Positions 5,390-61,542 of a stretch of DNA of 64,000 nt are shown piece by piece. Position 1 is the stretch's first letter; each line of letters starts with the position of its first letter. Both the position numbers and the translations under genes were made by a program. The notes under the pieces were generated by a model. That model made no database searches. It was given only the letters and a program-made list of their open reading frames with translations, and was not told where the DNA came from. The stretch covers positions 1-64,000 of the forward strand of contig JALJCO010007057.1 of the NCBI GenBank assembly GCA_023101725.1. Direction: 5' to 3'. The stretch comes from Atherinomorus stipes (lineage: Eukaryota > Chordata > Actinopteri > Atheriniformes > Atherinidae).

Positions 5390-6115
5390 GAAAAATACTT
5401 TATTCATCCCAGAAGGGAAATTCAGTATTGTAAAAGCTCACTTTTTTTTTTTTTTTTAAATAAACAAAAAAGTCAGTCAGTCTTGTTCTTTAGGGTGATG
5501 CTGCTAGCAGGAATGAATTTCTGTATCTCTCTGTCCTACAGCGAACTTGACGCAGCCTCCCACTGAACACACTCTGTTGATTCTTCACCGTGTTGTGGAG
5601 AGGATGGGAAGAATCCTCCATCATCTTCATCAGCTTGTGCAGCATTCTTTTTTGAACGATCAGCTCCAGCGGCTCCAGAGTTATCCCCAGCACAGAACCA
5701 GCTTTCTTGATCAGCTTGTTTAGTTTCTTCAAGTCTCTGGTTCTGATGCTGCTTCCCCAGCAGATGGCTGCAAAGCTAATTGCACTTTCCACAACAGACT
5801 TGTAGAAGATCTGCAACATCTTGGTGCAGACGTTGAATGATCTCAGCTTCCTTAAGAAGTAGAGTCTGCTCTGACGTTTCTTGTAGATGTAGTCAGTGTT
5901 GCATTTCCAGTCGAGTCTGTTGTCCAGCTGAACTCCAAGGTATTTGTAGTTCTCCACCACCTCCACCTCCTCTCCCAGGATGTAGACAAGACTATGCTGC
6001 TTATTCTTGCTCTCCTCCTGAAGTCAACAATCATCTCTTTAGTCTTGCTGGTATTTAAGATGAGCTGATTGTTACCGCACCATTTCACAAACTGATTGAC
6101 AAATTCCCTGTACTA
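5390..6115 (-). mobile_element. Rex1-like LINE fragment, 5'-truncated
   Basis: The minus strand encodes the C-terminal end of a non-LTR retrotransposon reverse transcriptase. The first frame has WCGNNQLILNTSKTKEMIVD (about 6088-6000) and the second VVENYKYLGVQLDNRLDW (about 5960), ending with SGRLRQVRCRTERYRNSF near 5510. These phrases are typical of the Rex1/Babar (CR1-like) LINEs of fish. The 3' end reads GAATTTCCCTTCTGGGATGA followed by ATAAAGTATT and a TTTCATT tail. A frame change near 5970-6000 and loss of everything upstream show a dead, 5'-truncated copy. It interrupts the L2-like element; similar ACAATAATGAA and ACAATATGAAG sequences at its two edges may be the target duplication. Confidence 0.75.
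5490..5966 (-). pseudogene. Reverse transcriptase C-terminus (Rex1-like LINE)
   Basis: A 158-codon open frame covering the post-catalytic portion of a LINE reverse transcriptase. The YKYLGVQLDN motif, normally just downstream of the catalytic YADD block, is at its N-terminus, and the RYRNSFLLAA ending is near its C-terminus. The catalytic motifs and the endonuclease are absent, and an upstream piece lies in another frame (5852-6088). It cannot encode an active enzyme. Confidence 0.75.
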
Positions 6116-7078: not shown

Positions 7079-7905
7079 TTATGGAGTTTATTTTGTGTTT
7101 TAATAGAAATCAAGAAAAAAAAATAATCTGAAAGAGGAAAATAGGTTTGAATCCAAAATAAAAAATATTGAGAGAATAAATTTGCACACTGATAGCAAAA
7201 ACTGATGTGATTTGAGACTAAAGAAAATGTTTTGAAGGAAAATATTTTATAATAGAATAAATAAAAATAAGTTGACATTTGGAAAATTATTTTCAAGGGA
7301 AAAAAGCTCTCTCAAAAATATATTTTTACTCTCAAATAGCGTTTTTTTGCATTCAGAGTGAAAACATGTTTTCTAAAAAAAAAATTCTCTCAAAACTTTT
7401 TCCTTCTCGCTTTCAAAACCTAAGTCTTTGCTCTCGATTCAGAATTTTTCTCTCGATGTGAAAACTGTGTCATGGGCGGGTCTGTGTTCCTATTGGCCAG
7501 TCTCAACAGAACTGACAGCCGGGTGGTGATATTCTGGGTAAAGGTGGTGACGCCTTCCTCGTTAATATTCATGAGGAAACTCCCGCTGAACCAGACGTAC
7601 TGATCCAGCAGCACGTTTAGAAGGACTCAGACTTTCTGAACGGTTAATAAATGCTGCTGCTGCTTTGGGAAACATGGATACACATCGCTGCGTCTTTCAT
7701 AAAAGTTAATAAAATAAGCAGCCGGGTTATAGTTATCCGTGTACACTTTTAGACATCGACTCGGGTGGAGTGGCTGCAGCCTCAGCCCTGCCAGAGTCTG
7801 ACGAGACGTGTTAAAATTTTCGTTGCCGAGACTGGAGGAAAATGTCAGTGTTTGATCTATCAGACATTCATAAGATGCAGGAAATTCCTGCTTATTGTGC
7901 ATTAA
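7079..7905 (+). repeat. Left arm of large inverted repeat
   Basis: The reverse complement of this ~830-bp arm matches 9230-10064 almost base for base, with small indels and scattered substitutions (roughly 95% by eye). An identical 64-codon open frame occurs in both arms (7420-7614 minus, 9530-9724 plus), which shows the similarity directly. I see no known protein in it. The arm contains repeated CTCTCAAA/CTCTCGAT words between 7309 and 7460. Confidence 0.9.
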
Positions 7906-8179
7906 TCTGCCATTTTGCCACTTTGTTCCCGTTCTGCTTCACATTACCAGCACTGTCTCTGTCTGCTGGAAATGATTCCGGTCTGATGTTTAAAACACGT
8001 CATGTCCAACGAAAAGCAAACTTATTTTCACTGCGACCCGCCCGAACTGCATAAATATCCGCCCTCACCTGAACCGTGATATTAATCTTTGACATTGTGT
8101 CTGCTAAACAGCGTTTTTGCGGGTTATCCGTCAGGTATCCGAATTGTTGCAGGACTTTGGTGCACATATGCACAACACG

Positions 8180-9000: not shown

Positions 9001-9229
9001 GAGAGGAATCCTTCTCCTCAGGTGCCAATCAGTTAATTAATATCACAGTTCATACATTTAGGAATTGACGTGTTGCTCAGGTCTGACAGGGAGAGCCGCA
9101 GTTAGTGGGTCTCGGTTCCGGCGGATGCGAGTTGGTAAAACCTGTGCAGAACTGCCACACGGCAAGTGGTGGTCCATGCGTCCAAACAAAAAGATGATGC
9201 ACTACTTTTTTAGCTTTTGACAGACAGAT

Positions 9230-10064
9230 TAATGCACAATAAGCAGGAATTTCCTGCATCTTATGAATGTCTGACAGACCAGGCACTGACATTTTCCTCC
9301 ATCTCATCTCATCAACGAAAATTTTAACACGTCTCGTCAGACTCTGGCAGGGCTGAGGCTGCAGCCACTCCACCCGAGTCGATGTCTAAAAGTGTACACA
9401 GATAACTATAACCCGGTTGCTTATTTTATTAACTTTTATGAAAGATGCAGCGATGTGTATCCATGTTTCCCAAAGCAGCAGCAGCATTTATTAACCGTTC
9501 AGAAAGCGCTAGTCTGAGTCCTTCTAAACGTGCTGCTGGATCAGTACGTCTGGTTCAGCGGGAGTTTCCTCATGAATATTAACGAGGAAGGCGTCACCAC
9601 CTTTACCCAGAATATCACCACCCGGCTGTCAGTTCTGTTGAGACTGGCCAATAGGAACACAGACCCGCCCATGACACAGTTTTCACATCGAGAGAAAAAT
9701 TCTGAATCGAGAGCAAAGACTTAGGTTTTGAAAGCGAGAAGGAAAAAGTTTTGAGAGAGAAATTTTTTTTTAGAGAAAATGTTTTCACTCTGAATGCAAA
9801 AAAACGCTATTTGAGAGTAAAAATATATTTTTGAGAGAGCTTTTTCTCTTGAAAATAATTTCCCAAATGTCAATTTATTTTTATTTATTCTATTACAAAA
9901 TATTTTCCTTCAAAACATTTTCTTTAGTCTCAAATCACATCAGTTTTTGCTATCAGTGTGCAAATTTATTCTCTCAATATTTTTTATTTTGGATTCAAAC
10001 CTATTTTCCTCTTTCAGATTATTTTTTTTCTTGATTTCTATTAAAACACAAAATAAACTCCATA
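9230..10064 (-). repeat. Right arm of large inverted repeat
   Basis: Inverted copy of the left arm. Differences include a short insertion near 9507-9513 (GCGCTAG) and altered sequence near 9280-9315. The arms end at matching ATGGAGTTTATTTTG / AAATAAACTCCAT words. The two arms are separated by a 1.3-kb loop. Confidence 0.9.
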
Positions 10065-10580: not shown

Positions 10581-11113
10581 AGGCCACTGGTTAGGTTCCG
10601 AGCATGCAAAAGTTTGGACAGGTAAGGAGGGGCAAGGCCTTTTAACTCTTTAAAAACAAATAATGTAATTTTAAAATAAATCCTAAAAGAAGCCAGTGAA
10701 GAGAAAACAGAACTGGGGTGATGTGCTGATGTCGAGGAGTGTTGGCTATAAAGTGGGCAGCTGCGTTCTGAACCAACTGAAGATGGTTGATTGATGACTG
10801 AGAAACTCTGACACAAAGTGCATTACAATAGTCCAGTTTAGAAGTTATAAAAGCATGAATAGCTTTTTCGAGATCACTATGATTTAAAAAAGGTTTTACT
10901 TTTGTTAAAAGACATAGTTCAATAATTGCCACGAAGAGCTGGTTGAATTCTTTTAATTCTTTTGAAACTAGGTCTAAAGCTTCAATTACCAACTCCCGAA
11001 GCACAAGACTTATTTATGAATGGGAAGAAAAGAGTGAGATTTCACAATTACAAGCAGTTGCAGTATGAAAATGGTAGTTCTTCTCTTATAGTCTCACAAC
11101 TGGATAATGAGTG
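10581..11113 (-). mobile_element. L2-like LINE, reverse transcriptase C-terminal segment
   Basis: The minus strand encodes the end of a reverse transcriptase in broken frames. It includes ITSKLDYCNALCVRVSQSSI (about 10840), then LQLVQNAAAHFIANTPRHQH and ITPVLFSLHWLL, then after a frame change ELKGLAPPYLSKLLHARNL. This order of motifs is diagnostic for fish L2/Maui-type elements. It is the 5'-ward continuation of the segments at 6116-6389 and 5301-5389. Frameshifts and missing catalytic motifs make it inactive. Confidence 0.8.
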
Positions 11114-11276
11114 TGTGACAGTGTGGGGTCCTGTCGCTATGCCTCAGATTGATCATGCGCCCTGGCTACTTGGCCACAGGGATGTCCCTTTGGCTGGCTG
11201 GTTAGCGCGCATGACTCTCACCTGGGAGTCTGGGGATCAAATCCTGGCCGGGCACTCTGTTGCATACCTTGCCACA
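11114..11276 (+). repeat. 5' LTR of the TRIM
   Basis: A 163-bp LTR, TG...CA bounded. The tRNA-like part lies at about 11187-11255: A-box-like TGGCTGGCTGGTTAG, then the anticodon-arm-like GACTCTCACCTGGGAGTC, then B-box-like GGGGATCAAATCC. It differs from the 3' LTR at roughly a dozen positions by eye, so the insertion is not brand new. Confidence 0.85.
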
Positions 11277-11279
11277 TTC

Positions 11280-11297
11280 TGGCGTTGTCGGCAGGAT
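11280..11297 (+). promoter_or_regulatory. Primer-binding site (tRNA-Ser type)
   Basis: TGGCGTTGTCGGCAGGAT starts three bases after the 5' LTR. Its complement, ATCCTGCCGACAACGCCA, matches the 3' end of vertebrate tRNA-Ser(AGA/TGA) plus CCA at 17 of 18 positions as I know that tRNA (GACTACG rather than GACAACG). This is the expected place and form for a minus-strand primer site. Confidence 0.75.
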
Positions 11298-11371
11298 CCA
11301 TGCGACGCTCGTAAACATTCCATGGATTCGAAATTGGCGGCACCCTTCACGGAGCACAAGGATGTGCTTGT

Positions 11372-11388
11372 GAAAAGAGGGGGAGAGA
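11372..11388 (+). promoter_or_regulatory. Polypurine tract
   Basis: Seventeen consecutive purines (GAAAAGAGGGGGAGAGA) lie directly against the 3' LTR start TGTGACAG. This is the standard plus-strand primer position of LTR retrotransposons. Confidence 0.85.
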
Positions 11389-11550
11389 TGTGACAGTGTG
11401 GGGTCCTGTCACTATGCCTCTGATTGATCATGCGCCCTGGCTACCTGGCCACAGGGATGTCCCTTTGGCTGACTGGTCTGGCGAATGACTTTCACCTGGG
11501 AATCTGGAGAGCAAATCCCGCCCGGGCCCTCTGTTGCGTACCTTGCCACA
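11389..11550 (+). repeat. 3' LTR of the TRIM
   Basis: A 162-bp LTR. The tRNA-like region reads TGGCTGACTGGTCTGGCG ... GGAGAGCAAATCCCGCCC, slightly degraded at the B box compared with the copy at 15290-15448. It ends CCTTGCCACA and is followed by the AGTG duplication. Confidence 0.85.
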
Positions 11551-12440
11551 AGTGTTTAAAGTTTTAAATCATTAACCTTCACTGATTGTCCATGTTTATT
11601 TATCTCGCATGAACAGCAGCATGAAAGGGCAACGTCAATGATGTGTTTGTTTTTTGTTTTTTTTGTCGTCTAACTTTAGAGCAGTCATAGATTCATCATG
11701 GTAAACCCACAGTGGGAGCTTGGTTGGACCCAGAGGCCGTAAACAAGGGGATGATTCTTTTGCTTACGTGACCCATTAGTTTCTGAAGAGCTAAAAATGA
11801 AGCCAGTTGGGTGTTCCTATCGTCGCCATCTTCGCTGCGTTGGGTGTGTCGTCACTTCCGGAAAATAATAAAATGGGCAAAGCGCGGCCTCAGGGCAAAT
11901 GATTGACAGCTGATGTACTCTGAGATAAACGCTAGCCGAGCTAACTCAAAACTAACAGGAGCTAATGAAGATTAGCCCCCTAAGCGGTGGGGTAAAGGTA
12001 AGACACGCTTAGACTCGCTATTAGCTGACCAAAAACTGCAGTTGTGCTACTCTGCTACTGAGACCAAACCGAGAACAAACTAGCTAACTAGGAGCCGGCA
12101 TCCGGTCGGCCGCCTGTCAATCAAAATGACACGCCCTTAATTATGTGTAATTTCAAGATTAAACACCATCTAAATGGATGACTTATAAAAATAAAAAAAA
12201 TCACCCCCCTTACAGCTGACATGAAGGTAAACTTGACCCATTCAACCTAAAATGATTTTTTGAACCAGGCTGTAATCATGTTTATTTCTGCTGTGAAGTT
12301 GACCTTTTTATGGGGATTTGCTATGTTTTGCAGCCAGCCCCTAGCAGATGAAGGGAGAAATATTTCCTTTTTCCGGGTGGCTTCATAGTTGGCCACTGGA
12401 GGATGCTGCTTGGTTGGACCTTGTAATCTTTTCCACGGAA
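11551..12440. repeat. Probable degenerate fish repeat, unclassified
   Basis: The word GCTTGGTTGGACC occurs near both ends (about 11719 and 12407). The text GCCAGCCCCTAGCAGATGAA with GGTGGCTTCATAGTTGG resembles a non-autonomous repeat seen widely in fish genomes. Borders and class are not determined. No coding potential seen. Confidence 0.35.
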
Positions 12441-14649: not shown

Positions 14650-15560
14650 TATTATAACAACAACAACTATAATTACACATTTTATTTGATAGCGCCTTTC
14701 AAGCTAAGAACAAATAAATGAGTGAAAGTGAAATCATGAATTATTTTGAACAGATGGGTCTTGAGTCTGGGTTTGAGAAAGATGAAGATGTTTCTGATGT
14801 TAGGGAAGAGTCAGTTCCAGAGTCAGGGAGCAGGATGACTGAAAGCTCTGCTGCTCTCCATGGTGCTGAGGCGGGAGGAAGAAGGTGTGAGGTGGAGGAG
14901 GAGGACCTGAGAGAGAGGGAGAGTGTGGTAATATGGATGAGATCAGACAGATGGGAAAGGTTGTGGATGGCTTTGATTTGAAGGTATGGAGGAGGATCCT
15001 AACAGTGGATCTGAATTTGACTGGAAGGTAGCGAAGCTGCTGGAGAACAGGGGTGATGAGGTGAAAGGAGGGGTCAGGTGATAATGTGGGCTGCTGAGTT
15101 CTGGACCAGTTGAAGTTTATGGAGGGATTTGTGGGGGACACCAAAGAGGAGTGAATTGCAGGAGTCAAGATGGGAAGTGATGAGACTGTGGACCAGGATG
15201 GCAGCCTGAGTGGGGAGAGAGAAAAGGGTGGAGGAGATTAATGGAATGAAGGTGGAAATTGGCAGACAAGGTTATATTACTGGTATCAGTGTGGCAGGAC
15301 GAAGGAGGGCCCGGGCGGGATTCGATCCCCAGACTCCCGGGTGAGAGTCATGCGCGCTAACCAGTCAGCCAAAGGGACATCCCCTTGGCCAAGTAGCCAG
15401 GGAACATGAAGACTCGGAGGCATAGTGACAGGACTGTCAACTGCCACATCAGCATGGAAAGAAAGTAAGCTGTCGAGGATGACACCCAGACTCTTTACCT
15501 GAGTGGAGGGGGAAACTGTAGTGCTGTCAGTATTTTAAGAAATTGTGGCTTTGCCGCCAA
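14650..15560 (-). mobile_element. Antisense L2-like LINE fragment
   Basis: A 3' tail (ATTTTATTTGATAGCGCCTTTC near 14680 on the plus strand) leads into minus-strand coding remnants. The minus frame at 14800-15168 contains PSFHLITPVLQQLRYLPVKF and ILLHTFKSK, the reverse transcriptase end of L2-type elements. The text continues after the solo LTR insertion with GATGACACCCAGACTCTTTA (from about 15479), part of the same repeat. Stops and frame changes make it inactive. Confidence 0.7.
15290..15448 (-). mobile_element. Solo LTR of the tRNA-like TRIM family
   Basis: Minus-strand copy of the LTR family found at 11114. It is bounded by TGTGGCAG and CTGCCACA and flanked by a perfect 4-bp duplication TCAG (15286-15289 and 15449-15452). 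Its tRNA-like core is the best preserved in the window: TGGCTGACTGGTTAGCGCG, GACTCTCACCCGGGAGTC and GGGGATCGAATCCC when read on the minus strand. The LTR-end sequence differs by a small deletion from the other copies. No internal region is present, so it is a solo LTR left by LTR-LTR recombination or an equivalent event. Confidence 0.85.
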
Positions 15561-32082: not shown

Positions 32083-32319
32083 TTAAACAATAAGACATAA
32101 GAATTAAATAATTTAAAAAAATGTACAAAGACAGTAATCAATAAAATGGTTTAAATTTATGATGCAACTAAACATTTATTTATATAAAATAACTTTATCA
32201 TGCAGCCTCACAGAGATAGAGAGGGAGTGTGTACAAAGTGGATGAGACAGGTTCATGTTTCTATTGTGACAGGAAGCACAAGATGGAAACAAGTGGTTGT
32301 CTATCAGTTCAATAGCAAT

Positions 32320-32530
32320 GGGCTATATGCACAACTCCGCTACTTCCTGAACTTAGTAGTGCTCCTTTGCTTCCTGTCTTTCATTACTGGACAAACCGAT
32401 TAATCCAGGTGTGTCTGGCCAGTTACAGAGGTCAAGCACACCTGGATTAATCAGTGTGTCCAATAATGAACGACAGGAAACAAAGGAGCACTACTAAGTT
32501 CAGGAAGTAGTGGAGTTGTGCATATAGCCC
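32320..32530. mobile_element. 211-bp near-perfect palindrome (foldback MITE)
   Basis: Two ~101-bp arms starting GGGCTATATGCACAACTCC and ending GGAGTTGTGCATATAGCCC, separated by about 9 bp (AGTTACAGA). The arms differ at only a handful of positions. The transcript or single strand would form a long hairpin. Likely a small MITE; no target duplication of more than 2-3 bp is evident. Confidence 0.85.
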
Positions 32531-32536
32531 ATTCTA

Positions 32537-33118: not shown

Positions 33119-33549
33119 AGCTTTATATCAGTCGTAATAAGGAAAAGATGGTTGATATTCTATTTGATATAGTTTACCAGGAATTGAGATTATGTGCACT
33201 AATACAGTCATCACCAAAAACACATAAGCAAATACAATTTGTATATGGAACCCCCCCCCCCCCACCAAAAAAACAACAAAAAAAACTTGCCTATAACTGC
33301 AAGAAATTTGTAATAACTACGTTTTTTCTGGCGGTGCTTAGCGACTGAAGCCAAGCTGAACCAAAGCTAAACTATAACTAGCTGGTAAATCACACAATAA
33401 ATGGAAACTGGCCACATAAAGTAACACTGTTCACCATATTTGTAACAGAAGATTCAGCTAATGCCTCACAATGCCATGAAATGTTGTAATCTCAGACACT
33501 TAATTAACGTCGGTCAATATTGGAACTTTCGACTTTTTGAACTATTTAA

Positions 33550-34007
33550 AGACACACAACGGAACTTTTAGCAGTTTTCTCAGTGACGCGCCCCCTATCA
33601 GCGACTAAACTAGCAACCCTCTTGTATCATACCTGCAGCCTGATTCACTCCAGCCAGTAAAAGACCGTCTTATCTTGACTCTTGTTCTGTCCCTTTCTCT
33701 CTTCCTTTTCCTCTCTTCCTCCTGTAATGTTTCCTTACCGAATCCGACATGAACGGCGTTCAAAACACGCGCGAGGTTGATCCCTGGTTTACATCCGGTT
33801 GCTAGTGAGTGACGCGGTGCTGCAGCCAATAGTCGGCTGCAACATCACAGTCGCGTCCCGGATGGGAATCTTACATAGTGCTGTTTCTGAGCCCCGGGAT
33901 GCCTCTGGGCAGTGACGGCTCGAAAATGTGCAAAATGAATGTTGGTGTGCCATCAAAACGAGTCAGAAACGCAGATTTTTAAGGTCTAAAAGTTACGTTG
34001 TGTGTCT
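33550..34007. mobile_element. TTAA-flanked MITE (AGACACACAACGGAAC ends)
   Basis: The ends AGACACACAACGGAACTTTT and AAAAGTTACGTTGTGTGTCT are inverse, with TTAA at 33546-33549 and 34008-34011. The same family recurs at 53316-53567 in a shorter form. They share AGTTTTCTCAGTGACG near the left end and GGTGTGCCATCAA near the right end. The body is 458 bp with no protein recognised. Confidence 0.8.
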
Positions 34008-34011
34008 TTAA

Positions 34012-35649: not shown

Positions 35650-36136
35650 CAGGGCTGTCCAATTTGGGGCCCAGGGGCTAAAGTTGGCCCGTAAGTTATT
35701 ATTTTTGGCCCGCTTCCCATTGTCTTTTTTTCCCTTTAAATTATGATTTTCCCAGCAATGTGAAAAGTTCTTTTGATAATTATTCATCGCTGCACTTCCC
35801 TTCCTGACCACAAATTAGCATTGCATTACATTGTGGGGGGTGGCACTGGTTCGTTTATCAGCACAGATCTGGAAGCCCATGATCAGAGAATATGTGAAAA
35901 GATGCTGTTCAAAATAAAACCTCATAAGTAATGTGAAAAAAAAAGATGAACACAATAAAGAACAGTGTTATTCCTTTTCCACATTACTTTTTATGGGGTT
36001 TTATTTTGAACAATTACGCTGTGAGCTAAGCATATTGAATTTTGTTCACTGCAACAAGAATTTTTAGTTTTGGCCCGTGTCCTTCTAGCCCGAGTCATTT
36101 TCAGCCCTCCAATGTAAAAAAAATTGGATACCTCTG
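35650..36136. mobile_element. hAT-type MITE with perfect 8-bp TSD
   Basis: Starts CAGGGCTGTCCAATTTGGGG and ends AATTGGATACCTCTG. An identical 8-bp duplication TGATAGAT flanks it (35642-35649 and 36137-36144). CAGGG-type ends and 8-bp duplications define hAT elements. The 487-bp body repeats GGCCCG words and encodes nothing recognisable. Confidence 0.85.
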
Positions 36137-38048: not shown

Positions 38049-39248
38049 TCAGACATCCATTTGGACCAGCACCAGAACGGGCGGTGCTTCAGCCACTTTG
38101 CTCTTCCGGCGCAACAGGTGAGTCAAGCTCCTGAAGGATGGGGTGGTATGGATAAGAAGCTCCTTGAGGCCTGCCCGAAACTCCCGGCGAATCAGGCAGT
38201 AGAGCACAGGGTTGAGGCAGCTGTTGGTGTGTGCCAGGCACACAGTTAACGGAAAGGCATAGGCCTGCACATTGTAAAAAGCTTTGCTGAATGGAACAAG
38301 GTCAAACTTTATGAGCACCCCCCAGAGTGTCAGCGCCTGATTTGGAAGCCAACACAGAAAGAAGGACAGAACCACAATGACAATAGATTTAGTCACTTTG
38401 GAGCGGCGGCTTTGACGGCCTTGCTTTACTTCCGGGCCTGCTGCGCCTGTGATGCGCCTGCTGAGGACGACGCGCAGAAGAAGTAGATAGCAGACAGTGA
38501 TTATGATCAGGGGAATCAGAAAACCCAGCAGGACTTTTTGAAGCTGGTATAAACCCAAAAGAAGCTGTGGATCCCAGCTGCCTGAGTCTGGAAAGCGCAC
38601 CAGGCAAAGTTCCTCGTCTGACACCTCAGCACTGGTGGAGTAGATGGCGTGAGGTAAGGTTGCCAGCAGGGAGACGGCCCAGATGCCAAGACTGGTCCAC
38701 TTGGCCCTGGTGGCTGCTGCCCTCCGACTGTGCATCTTCAGGGCGGACGAAATAGAGTAGTAACGCGCTACACTCATAGCTGTGAGGAAGAATACGCTGG
38801 CATACATATTCATGGTGGTGACAGAGCTGATGATTTTGCACATCACACGTCCAAACGGCCAGCGGAAGTCCAGGGCCGTGTCAACTGCCCAGAAAGGTAA
38901 AGTCAGAACAAACTGCAGATCTGTGATAGCCAGTCCCATCACAAAGCAGTTGATAGATGACTGCTTCTGCCTGTGACGCGAGTGCAGCAGGTAGAGAGCC
39001 AGTGAGTTTCCTACCAACCCCAGTGCACAGACTATAGAGTACACACACGCTATCATCACACGCACCACTAAGGAGCTGTCTCCTTGAAATTCCATGATAG
39101 ATTCCCTTGTGAGGAGCTGCAGCCAGCAGTGCAGTGACAGGTTGCTGGTGGAACCCACGTTGCTGTTTCCAATGTTGTCCTCTTGTAGTATTTGTTGCTC
39201 ACATGGCTCTGGAGCCAGTGTTTGAACTTCAGTCTCATTCAGCTGCAT
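38049..39248 (-). CDS. rxfp3: Relaxin-family peptide receptor 3-like GPCR (intronless)
   Basis: A single-exon frame of 399 residues encoding a rhodopsin-class receptor for relaxin-3/INSL5-type peptides at the plasma membrane. The RXFP3/RXFP4 family couples to Gi. Visible marks are N-glycosylation sequons at N4 and N36 in the extracellular tail, GLVGNSLALY in TM1 (N81), LAITD in TM2 (D110), Cys137 and Cys215 for the usual disulfide, SVARYYS in place of DRY at the end of TM3, CWLPNQ in TM6 (299-304) and NPVLY in TM7 (346-350). EELCLVRFPD in the second extracellular loop and LYQLQKVLLGF are typical of RXFP3. Human RXFP3 has 469 residues and RXFP4 374, so this length is in range. The start is the first ATG of the frame and gives a normal tail. 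Teleosts have several rxfp3 paralogues (rxfp3.1 to 3.3), and I cannot say which one this is. The frame is intact. Confidence 0.93.
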   Translation of the reverse strand: MQLNETEVQTLAPEPCEQQILQEDNIGNSNVGSTSNLSLHCWLQLLTRESIMEFQGDSSLVVRVMIACVYSIVCALGLVGNSLALYLLHSRHRQKQSSINCFVMGLAITDLQFVLTLPFWAVDTALDFRWPFGRVMCKIISSVTTMNMYASVFFLTAMSVARYYSISSALKMHSRRAAATRAKWTSLGIWAVSLLATLPHAIYSTSAEVSDEELCLVRFPDSGSWDPQLLLGLYQLQKVLLGFLIPLIIITVCYLLLLRVVLSRRITGAAGPEVKQGRQSRRSKVTKSIVIVVLSFFLCWLPNQALTLWGVLIKFDLVPFSKAFYNVQAYAFPLTVCLAHTNSCLNPVLYCLIRREFRAGLKELLIHTTPSFRSLTHLLRRKSKVAEAPPVLVLVQMDV

Positions 39249-39461
39249 GATGGACGCTTCCTCTCACATATCACCTTAAAGTGCAAAGTCAGAAAGCTGC
39301 TGTGTGTTCCAAAACACACAAGAAAAAGTTAGTCTTGATATCATTACCAGCATTCCCATCGTCTGTGTCAGCTTGTCTCCTACTGCGACATGGATGCCAT
39401 CCTTTGATTATCCTCCTCTCATTTCTCCTCGCATCTACTCTCTTTCAGCGCGCTACACCCC

Positions 39462-48233: not shown

Positions 48234-48665
48234 TGGTTACATGATAATTAATTCAGAATTAATAATTCAGAATTAAATGATTCCGAATTAAATTATTCTC
48301 CTTTGTGTTTACAAGGAAATAATAATTCCGAATAGAGGTTTAGATGGAAAACACATTTATCTAATTCCAATTTAGATCTGAGGGTTGGGAATGTTTACCA
48401 GAATTACCATTTTTATTTGGAATCCAGTGTTCACGTGACAGTGTGGGGTCCTGTCACTATGCTTCCAGCTGATCATGCGCCCTGGCTGCTTGGGGATATC
48501 GTTCTGGCTGACTGGTTCGTGCGCGTAACTCTCACCCGGGAATCTGGAGACTGAATCCTGTCTGGGCCCTTGTTGTGTACCTTGCCACATTTATAGGGTC
48601 CTTTAAAAGCAGAATTCACTTTTATTTAGAATTAAAGAGGAATTAAAACTTTCATGTAGACATGG
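48234..48665. mobile_element. AT-rich MITE interrupted by a solo TRIM LTR
   Basis: The outer text GTTACATGATAATTAATTCA ... AATTCAGAATTAAATGATTC at the left and TTTAGAATTAAAGAGGAATT with CATGTAGACATGGCC at the right are roughly inverse and resemble a fish MITE full of GAATTA words. The LTR at 48434-48589 lies inside it. Borders approximate. Confidence 0.5.
48434..48589 (+). mobile_element. Solo LTR of the tRNA-like TRIM family (degenerate)
   Basis: 156 bp starting CGTGACAGTGTGGGGTCCTG (first T changed to C) and ending ACCTTGCCACA. The tRNA-like core is TGGCTGACTGGTTCGTGCGC ... GGAGACTGAATCC, with a more damaged B box than the other copies. The flanks TTCA and TTTA match at three of four positions, consistent with an old 4-bp duplication. 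Confidence 0.8.
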
Positions 48666-49730
48666 CCAATGTCCAACCCCAAGTCCAAGAAATATAAGAT
48701 CCTGAGTTAAAAACATACAGAAACTGAATGCAATTATTAGCAAATGTCATAAAACAATATTATATTCATGCCAACTTATTCAATACAAACATGATTTTTT
48801 TTCCAACAGACTCTTCAAAGGAAAATACAATTTCATTTCTTTTAACATGCCTGCTATGTTTCACACTGCAGTTCCAACTTATTACCAGAAAGAAATCTAC
48901 TTTGTGTCACTTCAAACCTCTCTTACTTCCTATGGACATTTACAAGCTTTTTGCAACTTAATTGAATGAGGAAATAGCTACCCACTGACTTCGTTTTCAT
49001 ATTGCAATGTCAACACAGTCTGTCACGTTAAATGTGAAGGAATTCACCATCATTTGGCACATTTCTCTGAAATAAACTTCTAGTCTTCGTATTGCTGCAC
49101 CCCAGAACTCTAGCATGTCTACAATGTTGCACTGAGATGAATGCTCTCCTTGTTCTAAATCTACTTCTGGTAATTTTCTCTTTCAGAGTTACAAATGTTT
49201 TTCACACAAGTTGATGTTTTTTTAAAAAGTGATTTTATGCAATCAACCAGCAAGTTCAAACAACACAGTAACCGGAATCTCCAGGCCCTCTGTGAAGTCA
49301 AGACTACACAGACTATGAAAATTTCCATGTTAACAGTTTCAGTCTAACTGGGCCACAATTTAAGAACACTGTGATCCCACCATTATGTGGTCAGGAAACA
49401 AGCAAGGTGTGTGTAAGTGGTTTGGAAACCGTTCCCTTAAAAAAGTGACTAAGTCAACATATCAGTCACTGAGTGCGAAGTCTGACTCATGAGATAAGAG
49501 GTCATCTGTTCCAACTTTGACCCAGTTTTCTTTTCTTCTCTCTGTGAATCCCATGTGCACTGACATCATACTTACCTGCAGTTGCACTTTCAGCGATTGC
49601 TCCTCTAGAAACTGGATGATTAACCACTTATACTTCAAGCCATTTACTATAGTTTTGGTTTCCCTTTTCTCTCTCTCTCTTTTTTTTTTTTTAATTTTAA
49701 TGTAAAACTGCAATTAGAAACCCAGCCCTC
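48666..49730. other. Non-coding stretch, nothing recognised
   Basis: AT-rich; a pyrimidine tract (CTCTCTCTCT then T run) lies at 49671-49692. No gene recognised. Confidence 0.45.
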
Positions 49731-49734
49731 TTAA

Positions 49735-50641
49735 AGGAATAGTACACTCACAGATTGATTTAACTTTATTTTCCACTTGCCCTCATGGTGAGCAAGGCTC
49801 TGGAGCACTTGTTTAATATCTCAAATGCAGCCGGTGATCAAAAAGGGTTGTCCTTTCCCCCCCAACTTTCATATAATGGAGTTCGCCGGGGTCCGAGCCA
49901 AAAAGGTCCATAAAAGTCCACAAAAACTTGTCAATATTCCTCCATACTGGTCGTCCAATGTAATCCAAGTGTCCTGAGTGAGTAGCGTCCATAATTTACT
50001 CGAAACAACATCATTTAGTATATTTTAGAGCCTAAACAGTAGTACATCTTACTTTCACGAAGCACACATATGCACGTTCATGAAACTACGGAAGCCTCAG
50101 AGTTCACACCCTACTCTGCTGATAATGCAAGCGCAGAAGAAGAAATTTGCTGTTACATTGTGCTAAGAGCGCCAGAGCTGCAGACAAACTGGGACAAACA
50201 CAAGAGGGTCCAAGATGGGTTGGATATTAATTTAAAACAAAGAAAGAAAGAAAAAGAGAACGCGCGATCTCGTCTGCAGCGGCTTCCGTAGTTTTGTGTA
50301 CGTGTATCGGTGTGCTTGCTAGAGATGCGATGTAGTACTGTGTAGGCTCTAAAAATATACTAAATGACGTCATTTCGAGTTAATTCTGGATGCTACCCAC
50401 TCAGGACACTTGGACTACATGGGACGAGCAGTATGGAGGAATATTGACCAGTTTTTGTTGATTTTTATGGACCTTTTTTGGCTCGGACCCCGGCGAACTC
50501 CATTATATGAAAGTTGGGGGGAAAAGAGAAGCCTTCCTGATTGTCTGCTGCATTTGAGATATTAAACAAGTGCTCCAGAGTCTTGCTCACCATGAGGGTA
50601 AGTGGAAAATAGTTACATCATTCTGTGGGTGAACTATTCCT
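49735..50641. mobile_element. TTAA-flanked MITE with ~280-bp inverted arms
   Basis: The ends AGGAATAGTACACTCACAGA and TCTGTGGGTGAACTATTCC are inverse, with TTAA at 49731-49734 and 50642-50645. The inverse similarity extends inward through TTCATATAATGGAGTTCGCC and its complement and on to CACTCAGGACACTTGGA, giving arms of about 280 bp. The unpaired centre has GAAACTACGGAAGCCTCAG-type text. No protein recognised. Confidence 0.85.
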
Positions 50642-50645
50642 TTAA

Positions 50646-51752
50646 GCACAGTCAACAAACAGACAACTTTTTTTTTTCTCAGAACAGCTTTAATTGTTTG
50701 ATTGTGAGGCTACAGTGATGTAAAATGAATGTGTTAAAAGAAGTAGCACCATAAAGGGCAACCAAAAAACAAGACAGAATTTATTACTAACTTTTCAAAA
50801 ATAACACATAGGTAAACAAAGACGAGCCTTTTCTCATCTGCATTTTATTCTCTCAAGTCTTGGTTTTTGGGAGAAAAAATGTTGGAACTGAAACAAACAC
50901 ACAACAGTAACTATTTACATATTTGCCCTTTTTCCTCCAGGCTATTTGGTTATTTTCATTATCATTTACCTATTAGTCTCACAAAACCAATTCCAGCTCA
51001 TTTATTGCGGCACTGTGCATCAAGAACAGCCTCTTTGCTTCACTGCAACCATAGAGGAGCATTATTTTCGTTCGTTTCAGACAGAAATATTGCTTTCTTG
51101 TCACTTGTTGGTCTTTGGCTACTCCTAATTGAGCGTTGCATCAATAGAACCTATCTATTTGGTTGAAAGTTTGACAGGAAGTGACATCATCCTTATTTCA
51201 ACATAGTAGTGACAGCAATCTTTTTTTTATTATGTGATAAACAATTGCGTTTTTCTACAAGACTCATCATGGATTTATGATATAAAACTAAAAAAAAAAA
51301 AAAAAGCATTTTGTGGCTGGATTGCAAACATCAAGGTTGGAATTATCTTTCGCTCGTGGCGTCACTCTTCAGTAGCATGCTGACTCTGCCATGACGGATG
51401 TCAAAATAACGTCCATGAAGCTTGTCAAAAACCATGCAGGTAGCCTGATTTAACTTTTATTTTGCAATTATTTCAGTATAATACCAAGTGTGTTCTGCAG
51501 CCGACTGCTCAAACAGACAAGGATGTACACTGAACCTGGCATTTTACCTTTGATGAGGACAGAGGATGGTGATGTTAGTGTAGCACCTCGTCCCGGTGAT
51601 CCAGCCAGCGACAAAAAACAACCAGACTTTTGTAGACTTCCAAGTCTGCTCCAGTGTAAGGAGATGCACTGTTTATGACATAATGGCATAGATCAGAGTT
51701 CTCCAAGTCGGTCCTATGAGGGCCTGCAATCCTGTTCAAACACACACTCAAA
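50646..51752. other. Non-coding stretch, nothing recognised
   Basis: No gene recognised. The final part (about 51684-51752, TCAGAGTTCTCCAAGTCGG and GGGCCTGCAATCCTG) resembles one half of a hAT-like MITE of the 34574 type, cut by the next element. Confidence 0.45.
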
Positions 51753-52760: not shown

Positions 52761-53315
52761 TTAAGTGGATCCAACAGCCAAAGATATTCAGAAAAATGAC
52801 TAATTAATTTTAGTCTGGTGCGTTTGAGAAGAGATACATTGAAAATCTGCAGAATTGTGGTTCTTGTAGGACTGTACTGAGAAACCCTGTTGATAATGGG
52901 GCGTAAATTCAGGCAAAGTTGCCAATTTGATCAGATCAAAAACTTGACTTGAACTCGTATTCTTGACTTGAACTGGCCATGTTCTCAAAATAAGTTGTAA
53001 AAACTAGTAACAATCGCAGTCACAGATTTTTCTTTCCTGAGGTCCATCATGGCAGTCCCACGTGATTATGTGACGTAGCTGCAAAGGTCAGTAAACGTCT
53101 TGAAAAAAATCCATAGATCACATACAGGGTAAGCTATTAATCAGAATTTACCCCATAGATACACACTACCATTCCTGGGAAACTCTTGACAATTAAGACC
53201 AATGGTTCCCACCCTGGGATCCATGGATTCTCAGAGGCTTTGACTGTTCGGAACCAGTGTGACTGAAAATAAGGCCATGTCCACACAGAGATGAATTGAG
53301 GTGTGTTTGCTTAAA

Positions 53316-53567
53316 GGCCCACCACAGAACTTTTAGAAGTTTTCTCAGTGACGTGCCCCCTATTGACGGCTAAACTAACATCCATCTTCATCCTACCTGT
53401 ACTGTGAGCTGCAACGTCACCTGGATATAAAACTTACATGTGCAGTTTTTGAGCTTTGGGATGCATCTGGGCAGTGATGGTTCGAAATGACATAATGAAT
53501 GTTGGTGTGCCATCAACACAAGTCAGAAATACATATTTTTAAGGTCTAAACATTACTTTGTGGGTCT
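53316..53567. mobile_element. TTAA-flanked MITE, short relative of 33550-34007
   Basis: The left text AGGCCCACCACAGAACTTTT and right AAACATTACTTTGTGGGTCT are inverse, with TTAA at 53312-53315 and 53568-53571. Internal words (AGTTTTCTCAGTGACGTGCC, AATGTTGGTGTGCCATCAA) match the copy at 33550-34007, from which it differs by about 200 bp of internal deletion. Confidence 0.8.
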
Positions 53568-53722
53568 TTAAGTCTTTGTCATTTGGGTGTTTCATTCACA
53601 TGAAAACAGCGTTTTGGGAGCCGGAAAACACAAAGTTTGTACTAATTAATAATGCCACAGGGCAGACGATTTTTCAGGTGGAAGCTCATCAGTCTTTGGT
53701 AGTTGGATGAAGGGGTCCTCTG

Positions 53723-54179
53723 CACTGCAAAAACTCAAATCTTACCAAGTATATTTTTCTAATTTCTAGTCAAAATATCTCATCACACTTAAAATAAGAC
53801 AAAATTACTTGAAGAGAAACATTTCAGTAAGATATAGGAACTTTAAGACAATGCATCTTATTTCCAGATACCTTATCAAGAAAATTTTGCTTGTCCCAAT
53901 TGCAGAATTTGTTTTGCTTATTACAAGCAAAATAAATCTTGGCCACTCTTAAAATAAGTTGATTTTTTTTTTTTTTGCTTGTAATAAGAAAAAAAAATTC
54001 TGCCAATGGGACAAGAAAAAATTTCTAAGATTTCTTGAAATAAGATGCAATTTCTTAAAACAAGTTCCTATATCCTACTGAAATGTTTCTCTTTTTAAGT
54101 GATTTTGTCTTATTTTGGGTGTGATAAGATATTTTGAAATTAGAAAAATATACTTGGTAAGATTTGAGTTTTTGCTGTG
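53723..54179. mobile_element. MITE with ~190-bp inverted arms (CACTGCAAAAACTC ends)
   Basis: The left arm starts CACTGCAAAAACTCAAATCT and the right arm ends AGATTTGAGTTTTTGCTGTG. The similarity runs inward through ACCAAGTATATTTTTCTAAT and AGAAACATTTCAGTA for nearly 190 bp per side, including the repeated TTGCTTGT and AATAAG words. The only possible target duplication is TG, so the superfamily stays open (CACTG ends suggest, but do not prove, a CACTA-like origin). Confidence 0.8.

Positions 54180-54847: not shown

Positions 54848-61542
<6,695 letters not shown>

What the first reader, a model, noticed from the sequence alone, without database searches (positions are those of the whole stretch)
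11110..11554. Complete 437-bp TRIM whose LTRs carry a tRNA-like Pol III promoter
Seen: two ~162-bp direct LTRs (TGTG...CACA), a primer-binding site complementary to tRNA-Ser at 17 of 18 positions, a 17-base polypurine tract touching the 3' LTR, a 4-bp duplication AGTG, no protein, and A-box and B-box words inside each LTR. Known: TRIMs with small-RNA-gene promoters in their LTRs are few. Cassandra carries 5S rRNA, and the tRNA-like Helenus type has 4-bp duplications in animals. Inference: this is a fish member of the Helenus type, i.e. an LTR element probably started by RNA polymerase III. This particular family may be undescribed.
Basis: partly seen in the sequence, partly recalled or inferred. 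Interest (0 to 1): 0.88.

Follow-up and report, generated by a model that had tools for sequence, protein, structure and literature searches.

The report
Fish mini-retrotransposon with tRNA-like ends
A 437-base, gene-less retrotransposon in a fish genome carries a tRNA-like stretch in its end repeats, so it is likely transcribed by RNA polymerase III and probably moved by the enzymes of a larger retrotransposon; it fits a kind described in 2024 but appears to be a new family in a fish group where that kind had not been listed.

Summary
At 11114-11550 lies a complete 437-bp TRIM: LTRs of 163 and 162 bp (147 of 162 aligned bases identical, one gap), TGTG...CACA ends, an AGTG duplication, a tRNA-Ser primer site (17 of 18, the only such site in the window), a 17-base polypurine tract against the 3' LTR, no protein domain. 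Two further copies in the window are single LTRs, one flanked by CTGA/CTGA, one by TTCA/TTTA. Relatives show up as chance ORFs from unnamed assemblies: two of nine read from the LTR into the same primer site, four of nine leave the LTR end into other sequence. tRNA likeness beats 300 of 300 shuffles in three of four LTR copies and one solo LTR folds as a cloverleaf; but Rfam and ARAGORN call no tRNA, no window copy has a GGTTC box B, and the A+B pair is at chance in two of four copies. The host is a percomorph, probably a cyprinodontiform; published vertebrate Helenus is listed for coelacanth, sturgeon/paddlefish and Ostariophysi, primed by His, Leu or Lys tRNA. I file it as a likely new Helenus (TRIMp3) family. 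Pol III use and the helper element are inferred. Ordinary in kind, new in host and primer.

The parts
11110..11113 (+). 5' target-site duplication AGTG
11114..11276 (+). 5' LTR, 163 bp, TGTGACAG...GCCACA
11182..11254 (+). tRNA-like stretch of the 5' LTR
   Evidence: local alignment of the LTR to recalled tRNAs scores above 300 of 300 dinucleotide shuffles
11191..11201 (+). A-box-like word of the 5' LTR (TGGCTGGCTGG)
   Evidence: a second A-like word lies at LTR position 58
11234..11244 (+). B-box-like word of the 5' LTR (GGATCAAATCC, one mismatch to GGTTCRANNCC)
11280..11297 (+). primer-binding site, 17 of 18 to the tRNA-Ser 3' end
11372..11388 (+). polypurine tract GAAAAGAGGGGGAGAGA touching the 3' LTR
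11389..11550 (+). 3' LTR, 162 bp
11466..11476 (+). A-box-like word of the 3' LTR (TGGCTGACTGG)
11508..11518 (+). worn B-box-like word of the 3' LTR (AGAGCAAATCC, three mismatches)
11551..11554 (+). 3' target-site duplication AGTG
11562..11565 (+). first TTTT downstream of the element: candidate Pol III stop in flanking DNA; none on the sense strand of the element
15290..15448 (-). solo LTR of the same family, 159 bp, flanked by CTGA/CTGA; its tRNA-like part folds as a cloverleaf
48434..48589 (+). more diverged solo LTR, 156 bp, flanks TTCA/TTTA

Best explanation
This is a gene-less LTR retrotransposon of 437 bp (a TRIM) whose LTRs hold a tRNA-like stretch that is predicted to act as an internal RNA polymerase III promoter, and it is likely copied and inserted by the proteins of an autonomous, probably Gypsy, element. 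Shown: the LTR pair, ends, duplication, PBS, PPT, further LTR copies and the tRNA likeness. Inferred: Pol III starts near 11184 in the 5' LTR (tRNA position 1 counted back from the A box), reads through the element, which has no TTTT on the sense strand, and stops in the flanking DNA, here first at 11562; tRNA-Ser primes minus-strand synthesis at 11280-11297; the shared R/U5 part allows the jump to the 3' LTR; the PPT primes the second strand; a borrowed integrase makes the 4-bp duplication. Because the promoter lies downstream of the start, it would be kept in new copies. It fits the Helenus type (TRIMp3), as an apparently undescribed family in a percomorph fish.
For: Anatomy. LTR copies with 4-of-4 and 3-of-4 duplications. 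tRNA likeness above 300 of 300 dinucleotide shuffles in 3 of 4 LTR copies (recalled tRNAs). Minimum-energy cloverleaf in the solo LTR 15290-15448; a three-branch junction occurs in 9 of 500 of its shuffles. Relatives: 9 chance ORFs at E<=1 among 88 candidates; by eye, P0122 and P0123 continue from the LTR end into SGVVGRIH, the peptide that the tRNA-Ser complement encodes in that frame, and P0122 keeps the PPT-side peptide KDVLVKRGGE. By eye, in P0122, P0123, P0124 and P0125 a Val codon (GTN) puts T at box-B base 3, as in GGTTC. No TTTT, AATAAA or TATAA on the sense strand of the element or of either solo LTR. Helenus definition and hosts: PMC10886601.
Against: No tRNA called by Rfam over the whole window at gathering scores, nor at E<=10 over the element and solo 15290-15448 (solo 48434-48589 was not searched at E<=10), nor by ARAGORN, also with its pseudogene option on the 4 LTR copies. 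Solo 48434-48589 is no more tRNA-like than its shuffles (98 of 300 as good), and A+B words are at chance in 2 of 4 copies. Box B reads GGTTC in 0 of 4 window copies. The cloverleaf is absent in the other 3 of 4 copies and from the alignment fold. Over the four copies the tRNA-like part is hardly more conserved (50 of 72 columns) than the part upstream (44 of 69), so selection on the promoter is not shown. Lack of TTTT is weak: 26.85% of 2000 mononucleotide shuffles of the element lack it too. P0126 lacks the box-B stretch. No transcript data and no autonomous partner.
Confidence: 0.75

Rival explanations
1. A TRIM with an ordinary Pol II promoter in which the tRNA-like stretch is only a relic, for example of a SINE inserted in an ancestral LTR.
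For: A+B words at chance in 2 of 4 copies; GGTTC box B in 0 of 4 window copies; little extra conservation of the tRNA-like part; no covariance-model tRNA hit.
Against: No TATAA or AATAAA in the element or the solo LTRs; the best-kept copy has one box-B mismatch and a cloverleaf; four ORF relatives imply T at box-B base 3 (by eye).
Confidence: 0.21
2. Two tandem or dimeric tRNA-derived SINEs that mimic LTRs, moved by a LINE.
For: Unit of about 160 bp with a tRNA-like stretch; single units occur alone in the window.
Against: TG...CA ends, 4-bp duplications, PBS beside the first unit and PPT against the second, no tail of simple repeats by eye; two ORF relatives repeat the order LTR-PBS.
Confidence: 0.03
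3. Chance direct repeat or local duplication without mobility.
For: None found.
Against: Two dispersed copies in 64 kb with 4-of-4 and 3-of-4 duplications and relatives in other assemblies.
Confidence: 0.01

Closest known systems
Helenus of ray-finned fish (LTR-11_DR of zebrafish and relatives; Kojima 2024, PMC10886601)
   Same: TRIM under 1000 bp, tRNA-like stretch in the LTRs, PBS, PPT, 4-bp duplication in animals, no protein, solo LTRs
   Different: Host: percomorph, against coelacanth, Acipenseriformes and Ostariophysi in Table 1. Primer: tRNA-Ser, against His, Leu or Lys for vertebrates (section 3.6). Box B GGATC or worn here, whereas GGTTC is described as conserved. The sequences could not be compared: supplements and Repbase were not available.
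Bivalve Helenus families
   Same: Some use tRNA-Ser as primer (PMC10886601, section 3.6); animal Helenus makes 4-bp duplications
Cassandra and Ajax
   Same: TRIM with a small-RNA-gene-derived stretch in the LTR
   Different: They carry 5S rRNA sequence; no 5S match here. Cassandra transcripts end inside the 3' LTR (PMC10886601, introduction); here no TTTT lies in the element
tRNA-derived SINEs (SINE2)
   Same: tRNA-like head expected to recruit Pol III
   Different: SINEs have no LTR, PBS or PPT; the duplication here is 4 bp

Membership tests
Helenus (TRIMp3) | TRIM under 1000 bp with two LTRs and no protein | tested here: met
   437 bp, LTR pair, no Pfam domain
Helenus (TRIMp3) | tRNA-derived sequence in the LTRs | tested here: met
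   Alignment to recalled tRNAs beats 300 of 300 shuffles in 3 of 4 LTR copies, fails in 1 of 4. Rfam and ARAGORN negative, so tRNA-like, not a tRNA gene
Helenus (TRIMp3) | PBS and PPT between the LTRs | tested here: met
Helenus (TRIMp3) | 4-bp target duplication in animals | tested here: met
   Exact in 2 of 3 insertions, 3 of 4 bases in the third
Helenus (TRIMp3) | Box A with TRGCY and YGG (most published LTRs) | tested here: met
   TGGCT...CTGG in 4 of 4 LTR copies
Helenus (TRIMp3) | Box B with GGTTC (described as conserved) | tested here: inconclusive
   GGTTC at box B in 0 of 4 window copies: GGATC in 2, worn in 2; ORF relatives P0122-P0125 imply T at base 3 (by eye)
Helenus (TRIMp3) | tRNAscan-SE or Censor match to the published set | not testable with these tools
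   Repbase, supplements and tRNAscan-SE not on hand
Helenus (TRIMp3) | PBS shared with an autonomous Gypsy of the host | not testable with these tools
   Host genome not available; 28 of 32 ORFs of 110 aa or more in the window were scanned and none matched a Gypsy-type Pfam domain
Helenus (TRIMp3) | Pol III transcription | not testable with these tools
   No expression data; also unproven for published Helenus (PMC10886601, section 4.1)
Cassandra / Ajax | 5S rRNA sequence in the LTR | tested here: not met
   No 5S family hit at E<=10 over the element and solo 15290-15448
SINE | No LTRs, PBS or PPT | tested here: not met
   LTRs, PBS and PPT present

The most novel reading that the evidence does not exclude
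A separately born percomorph lineage of Pol III-driven LTR retroelements: a whole tRNA (acceptor to T arm) was captured in the LTR of a tRNA-Ser-primed Gypsy-type TRIM, and its transcripts have no built-in stop but end, SINE-like, at the first TTTT of the flanking DNA, unlike Cassandra, which stops inside its 3' LTR.
Probability: 0.27. Interest if true: 0.6.

Novelty: new member of a known kind. Interest (0 to 1): 0.46.

Why it matters
TRIMs with Pol III promoters are few and, apart from Cassandra, not validated for transcription (PMC10886601, section 4.1). A family in percomorphs, which include laboratory fish such as medaka and killifish (recalled), would widen the known range of Helenus in vertebrates, add tRNA-Ser to its vertebrate primers, and offer a laboratory host in which the Pol III claim could be tested directly. 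It may also explain part of the tRNA-like clutter in fish genome annotation.

Tried and rejected
Tandem SINE dimer: rejected for TG...CA ends, PBS, PPT and 4-bp duplications. tRNA gene: rejected, no Rfam or ARAGORN hit. mir-552 and other weak Rfam hits (18.4 bits or less, far below their gathering scores) taken as chance. Reading the 148-aa ORF as a protein: rejected, no Pfam hit, and P0122 matches it over part of its length and another frame over the PBS. The 16/18 Glu-like site at 58651 does not start with TGG and is taken as chance. DNA pattern and relative scans of viral contigs and genome contigs, and blastn against phages and plasmids, found no relative; these are not fish collections.

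Isotype of the tRNA-like part: unresolved; best local alignments were Pro (5' and 3' LTR), Thr with Asn close behind (solo 15290-15448) and Gln (solo 48434-48589, not above chance).

Literature: apart from PMC10886601, the listings (20 of 2,745 papers shown; 15 of 23; 15 of 664; 1 of 1; 10 of 8,373; 1 of 1; 10 of 12; 8 of 18) showed, by title and start of abstract, no paper on a percomorph Helenus or on a vertebrate one with tRNA-Ser. Two passages of PMC12859917 were seen: it only cites Kojima 2024. Repbase and Dfam were not searchable, so 'undescribed' is not established.

Confidence lowered from 0.76 to 0.75 for the missing GGTTC.

Full report
What is in the sequence. The stretch 11114-11550 is bounded by two direct repeats of 163 and 162 bp that agree at 147 of 162 aligned bases with one gap. 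Both begin TGTGACAG and end GCCACA, and AGTG stands directly before and after the element. Three bases after the 5' LTR comes TGGCGTTGTCGGCAGGAT, which fits the complement of ATCCTGCCGACTACGCCA at 17 of 18 positions. That 18-mer is printed as a tRNA fragment in PMC12025293 and inside a longer 3' fragment in PMC7330628 (one passage of each seen); that it belongs to tRNA-Ser is recalled. On both strands of the window no other place reaches 17 of 18 against 21 recalled tRNA ends, one reaches 16, and 0 of 2000 mononucleotide shuffles of the internal region reach 17 in the first 11 offsets. A run of 17 purines ends exactly at the 3' LTR. The ORF that crosses the element has no Pfam domain.

Other copies in the window. 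blastn of the LTRs finds two more places. One is 15290-15448 on the minus strand, 159 bp, flanked on both sides by CTGA; the other is 48434-48589, 156 bp, flanked by TTCA and TTTA. [quoted passage not shown] The blast matches stop short of some ends (15434 and 15305 in one copy, 48435 in the other); I set the last bases by eye on TGTGGCAG, CCACA and CGTGACAG with the flanks in view. Extending the two 5' ends without gaps gives the same starts, so they were not chosen for the duplication, but the 3' end of the first needs a 4-base gap.

Relatives elsewhere. The DNA collections on hand that I could scan are viral, bacterial, archaeal, phage and plasmid; scans of four of them gave nothing, and the genome search did not complete. 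I therefore used the protein database as a DNA probe: the translation of 11115-11390 found one 92-aa ORF from an ENA contig, and an alignment of three translations found nine ORFs at E<=1 among 88 candidates, that one included. I read them not as proteins of the element but as chance ORFs over related copies. By eye: in 7 of 9 the stretch encoding the A box is in the same frame (PLADWLA-like), in the other 2 it is in another frame; the box-B stretch is in frame in 5 of 9 and missing in P0126. P0122 and P0123 run from the LTR end (LPH) into SGVVGRIH, which is what the tRNA-Ser complement encodes in that frame, and P0122 continues to KDVLVKRGGE at the PPT. P0124, P0125, P0126 and P0127 leave the LTR end into other sequence; two of these (P0124, P0126) have a Trp codon, TGG, about where a PBS would begin, so they could also be elements with another primer rather than solo or 3' LTRs. 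P0128 and P0130 stop before the LTR end, and P0129 is shifted in frame. P0126, P0128 and P0130 share one upstream flank and may be one insertion. This repeats the order LTR-PBS in two ORFs, and LTR-PBS-PPT in one, outside the window. The species of these contigs are unknown and could be few.

The tRNA-like stretch. Local alignment to 21 recalled tRNAs scores above 300 of 300 dinucleotide shuffles in the 5' LTR, 3' LTR and solo 15290-15448, but not in solo 48434-48589 (98 of 300 as good). In solo 15290-15448 the second-best alignment, to tRNA-Asn, spans bases 1 to 70 of the tRNA, and the minimum-energy fold is a cloverleaf; a three-branch junction occurs in 9 of 500 shuffles. The other three copies do not fold so. 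Against this, Rfam gives no tRNA at gathering scores in the window or at E<=10 over the element and solo 15290-15448, and ARAGORN none. My A+B scan was at chance in 2 of 4 copies and picked other A-like words (positions 58 or 50), so the A box at position 78 rests on the tRNA alignments. In the 5' LTR of the complete element box A has G for the usual A, so this copy itself may be weak. Box B is GGATC in two copies, worn in two, GGTTC in none. Conservation of the tRNA-like part over the four copies (50 of 72 columns) hardly exceeds that of the upstream part (44 of 69).

Host. The window holds an open 404-codon frame (38052-39263, minus) whose relatives are named relaxin family peptide receptor 3.2b: 93% to Nothobranchius, 92% to Poeciliopsis, 81% to Carassius and Chanos (best 120 of 1338 listed). 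In a tree of 31 rows it falls in a fork of 20 rows (support 100/99) that I read as percomorphs, next to Poeciliopsis (97/79) and then Nothobranchius (94/77); no smaller fork with it passes the tool's support mark. So: a percomorph, probably a cyprinodontiform.

How it likely works. An internal Pol III promoter in the LTR would start RNA near 11184; there is no TTTT on the sense strand of the element, and the first starts at 11562, the 12th base after the 3' LTR. The RNA would carry the same R/U5 stretch at both ends, which is what strand transfer needs, and extra flanking bases at its 3' end should not matter. tRNA-Ser would prime, the PPT would prime the plus strand, and a Gypsy-type integrase would give the 4-bp duplication (only Gypsy elements resembled animal Helenus at the PBS region, PMC10886601 section 3.6). 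Missing TTTT is weak evidence: 26.85% of 2000 mononucleotide shuffles of the element lack it, though only 49 of 636 overlapping stretches of the same length in this AT-richer window do.

What is known. Kojima 2024 (PMC10886601; I read the abstract, introduction, methods, results, discussion, figure legends and Tables 1-2, not the supplements) defines Helenus as TRIMs with tRNA-derived LTR sequence. Its vertebrate hosts are coelacanth, sterlet, paddlefish and Ostariophysi, and its vertebrate primers tRNA-His, -Leu and -Lys; tRNA-Ser is reported for bivalves. The present element meets the structural features of the group and differs in host and primer. Whether it is already in Repbase under another name could not be checked.

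Verdict. Observation confirmed, interpretation supported, kind already known. The Pol III step is inferred here and is also untested in print for Helenus (section 4.1).

Noticed in passing
7080-7909 and 9225-10064: Inverted repeat of 842 aligned bases at 96% identity enclosing about 1.3 kb; looks like a large foldback or long-TIR DNA transposon next to the TRIM.
   Followed up: partly
49730-50096 and 50281-50646: Second inverted repeat, 369 aligned bases at 87% identity.
   Followed up: no
53723-54179, 32317-32533, 35906-36012: Self-complementary (palindromic) stretches, hairpin MITE-like.
   Followed up: no
33867-34011 and 53430-53571; 33546-33635 and 53311-53399: Dispersed direct repeat pairs at 84% and 82% identity, probably one further repeat family.
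   Followed up: no
38052-39263 (-): Open reading frame for relaxin family peptide receptor 3.2b, used to place the host.
   Followed up: yes
5493-6023 (-): ORF with a Pfam ALKBH8_N match (E 3e-13); reads like the end of a fish LINE protein (the LINE reading is recalled).
   Followed up: no
P0126, P0128, P0130 (unnamed contigs): Three chance ORFs share the same upstream peptide before the LTR start, so one insertion in several assemblies or a repeated target.
   Followed up: no
P0124, P0126 (unnamed contigs): Both have a TGG codon about where a PBS would start after the LTR end, without the tRNA-Ser site; possibly relatives with another primer.
   Followed up: no
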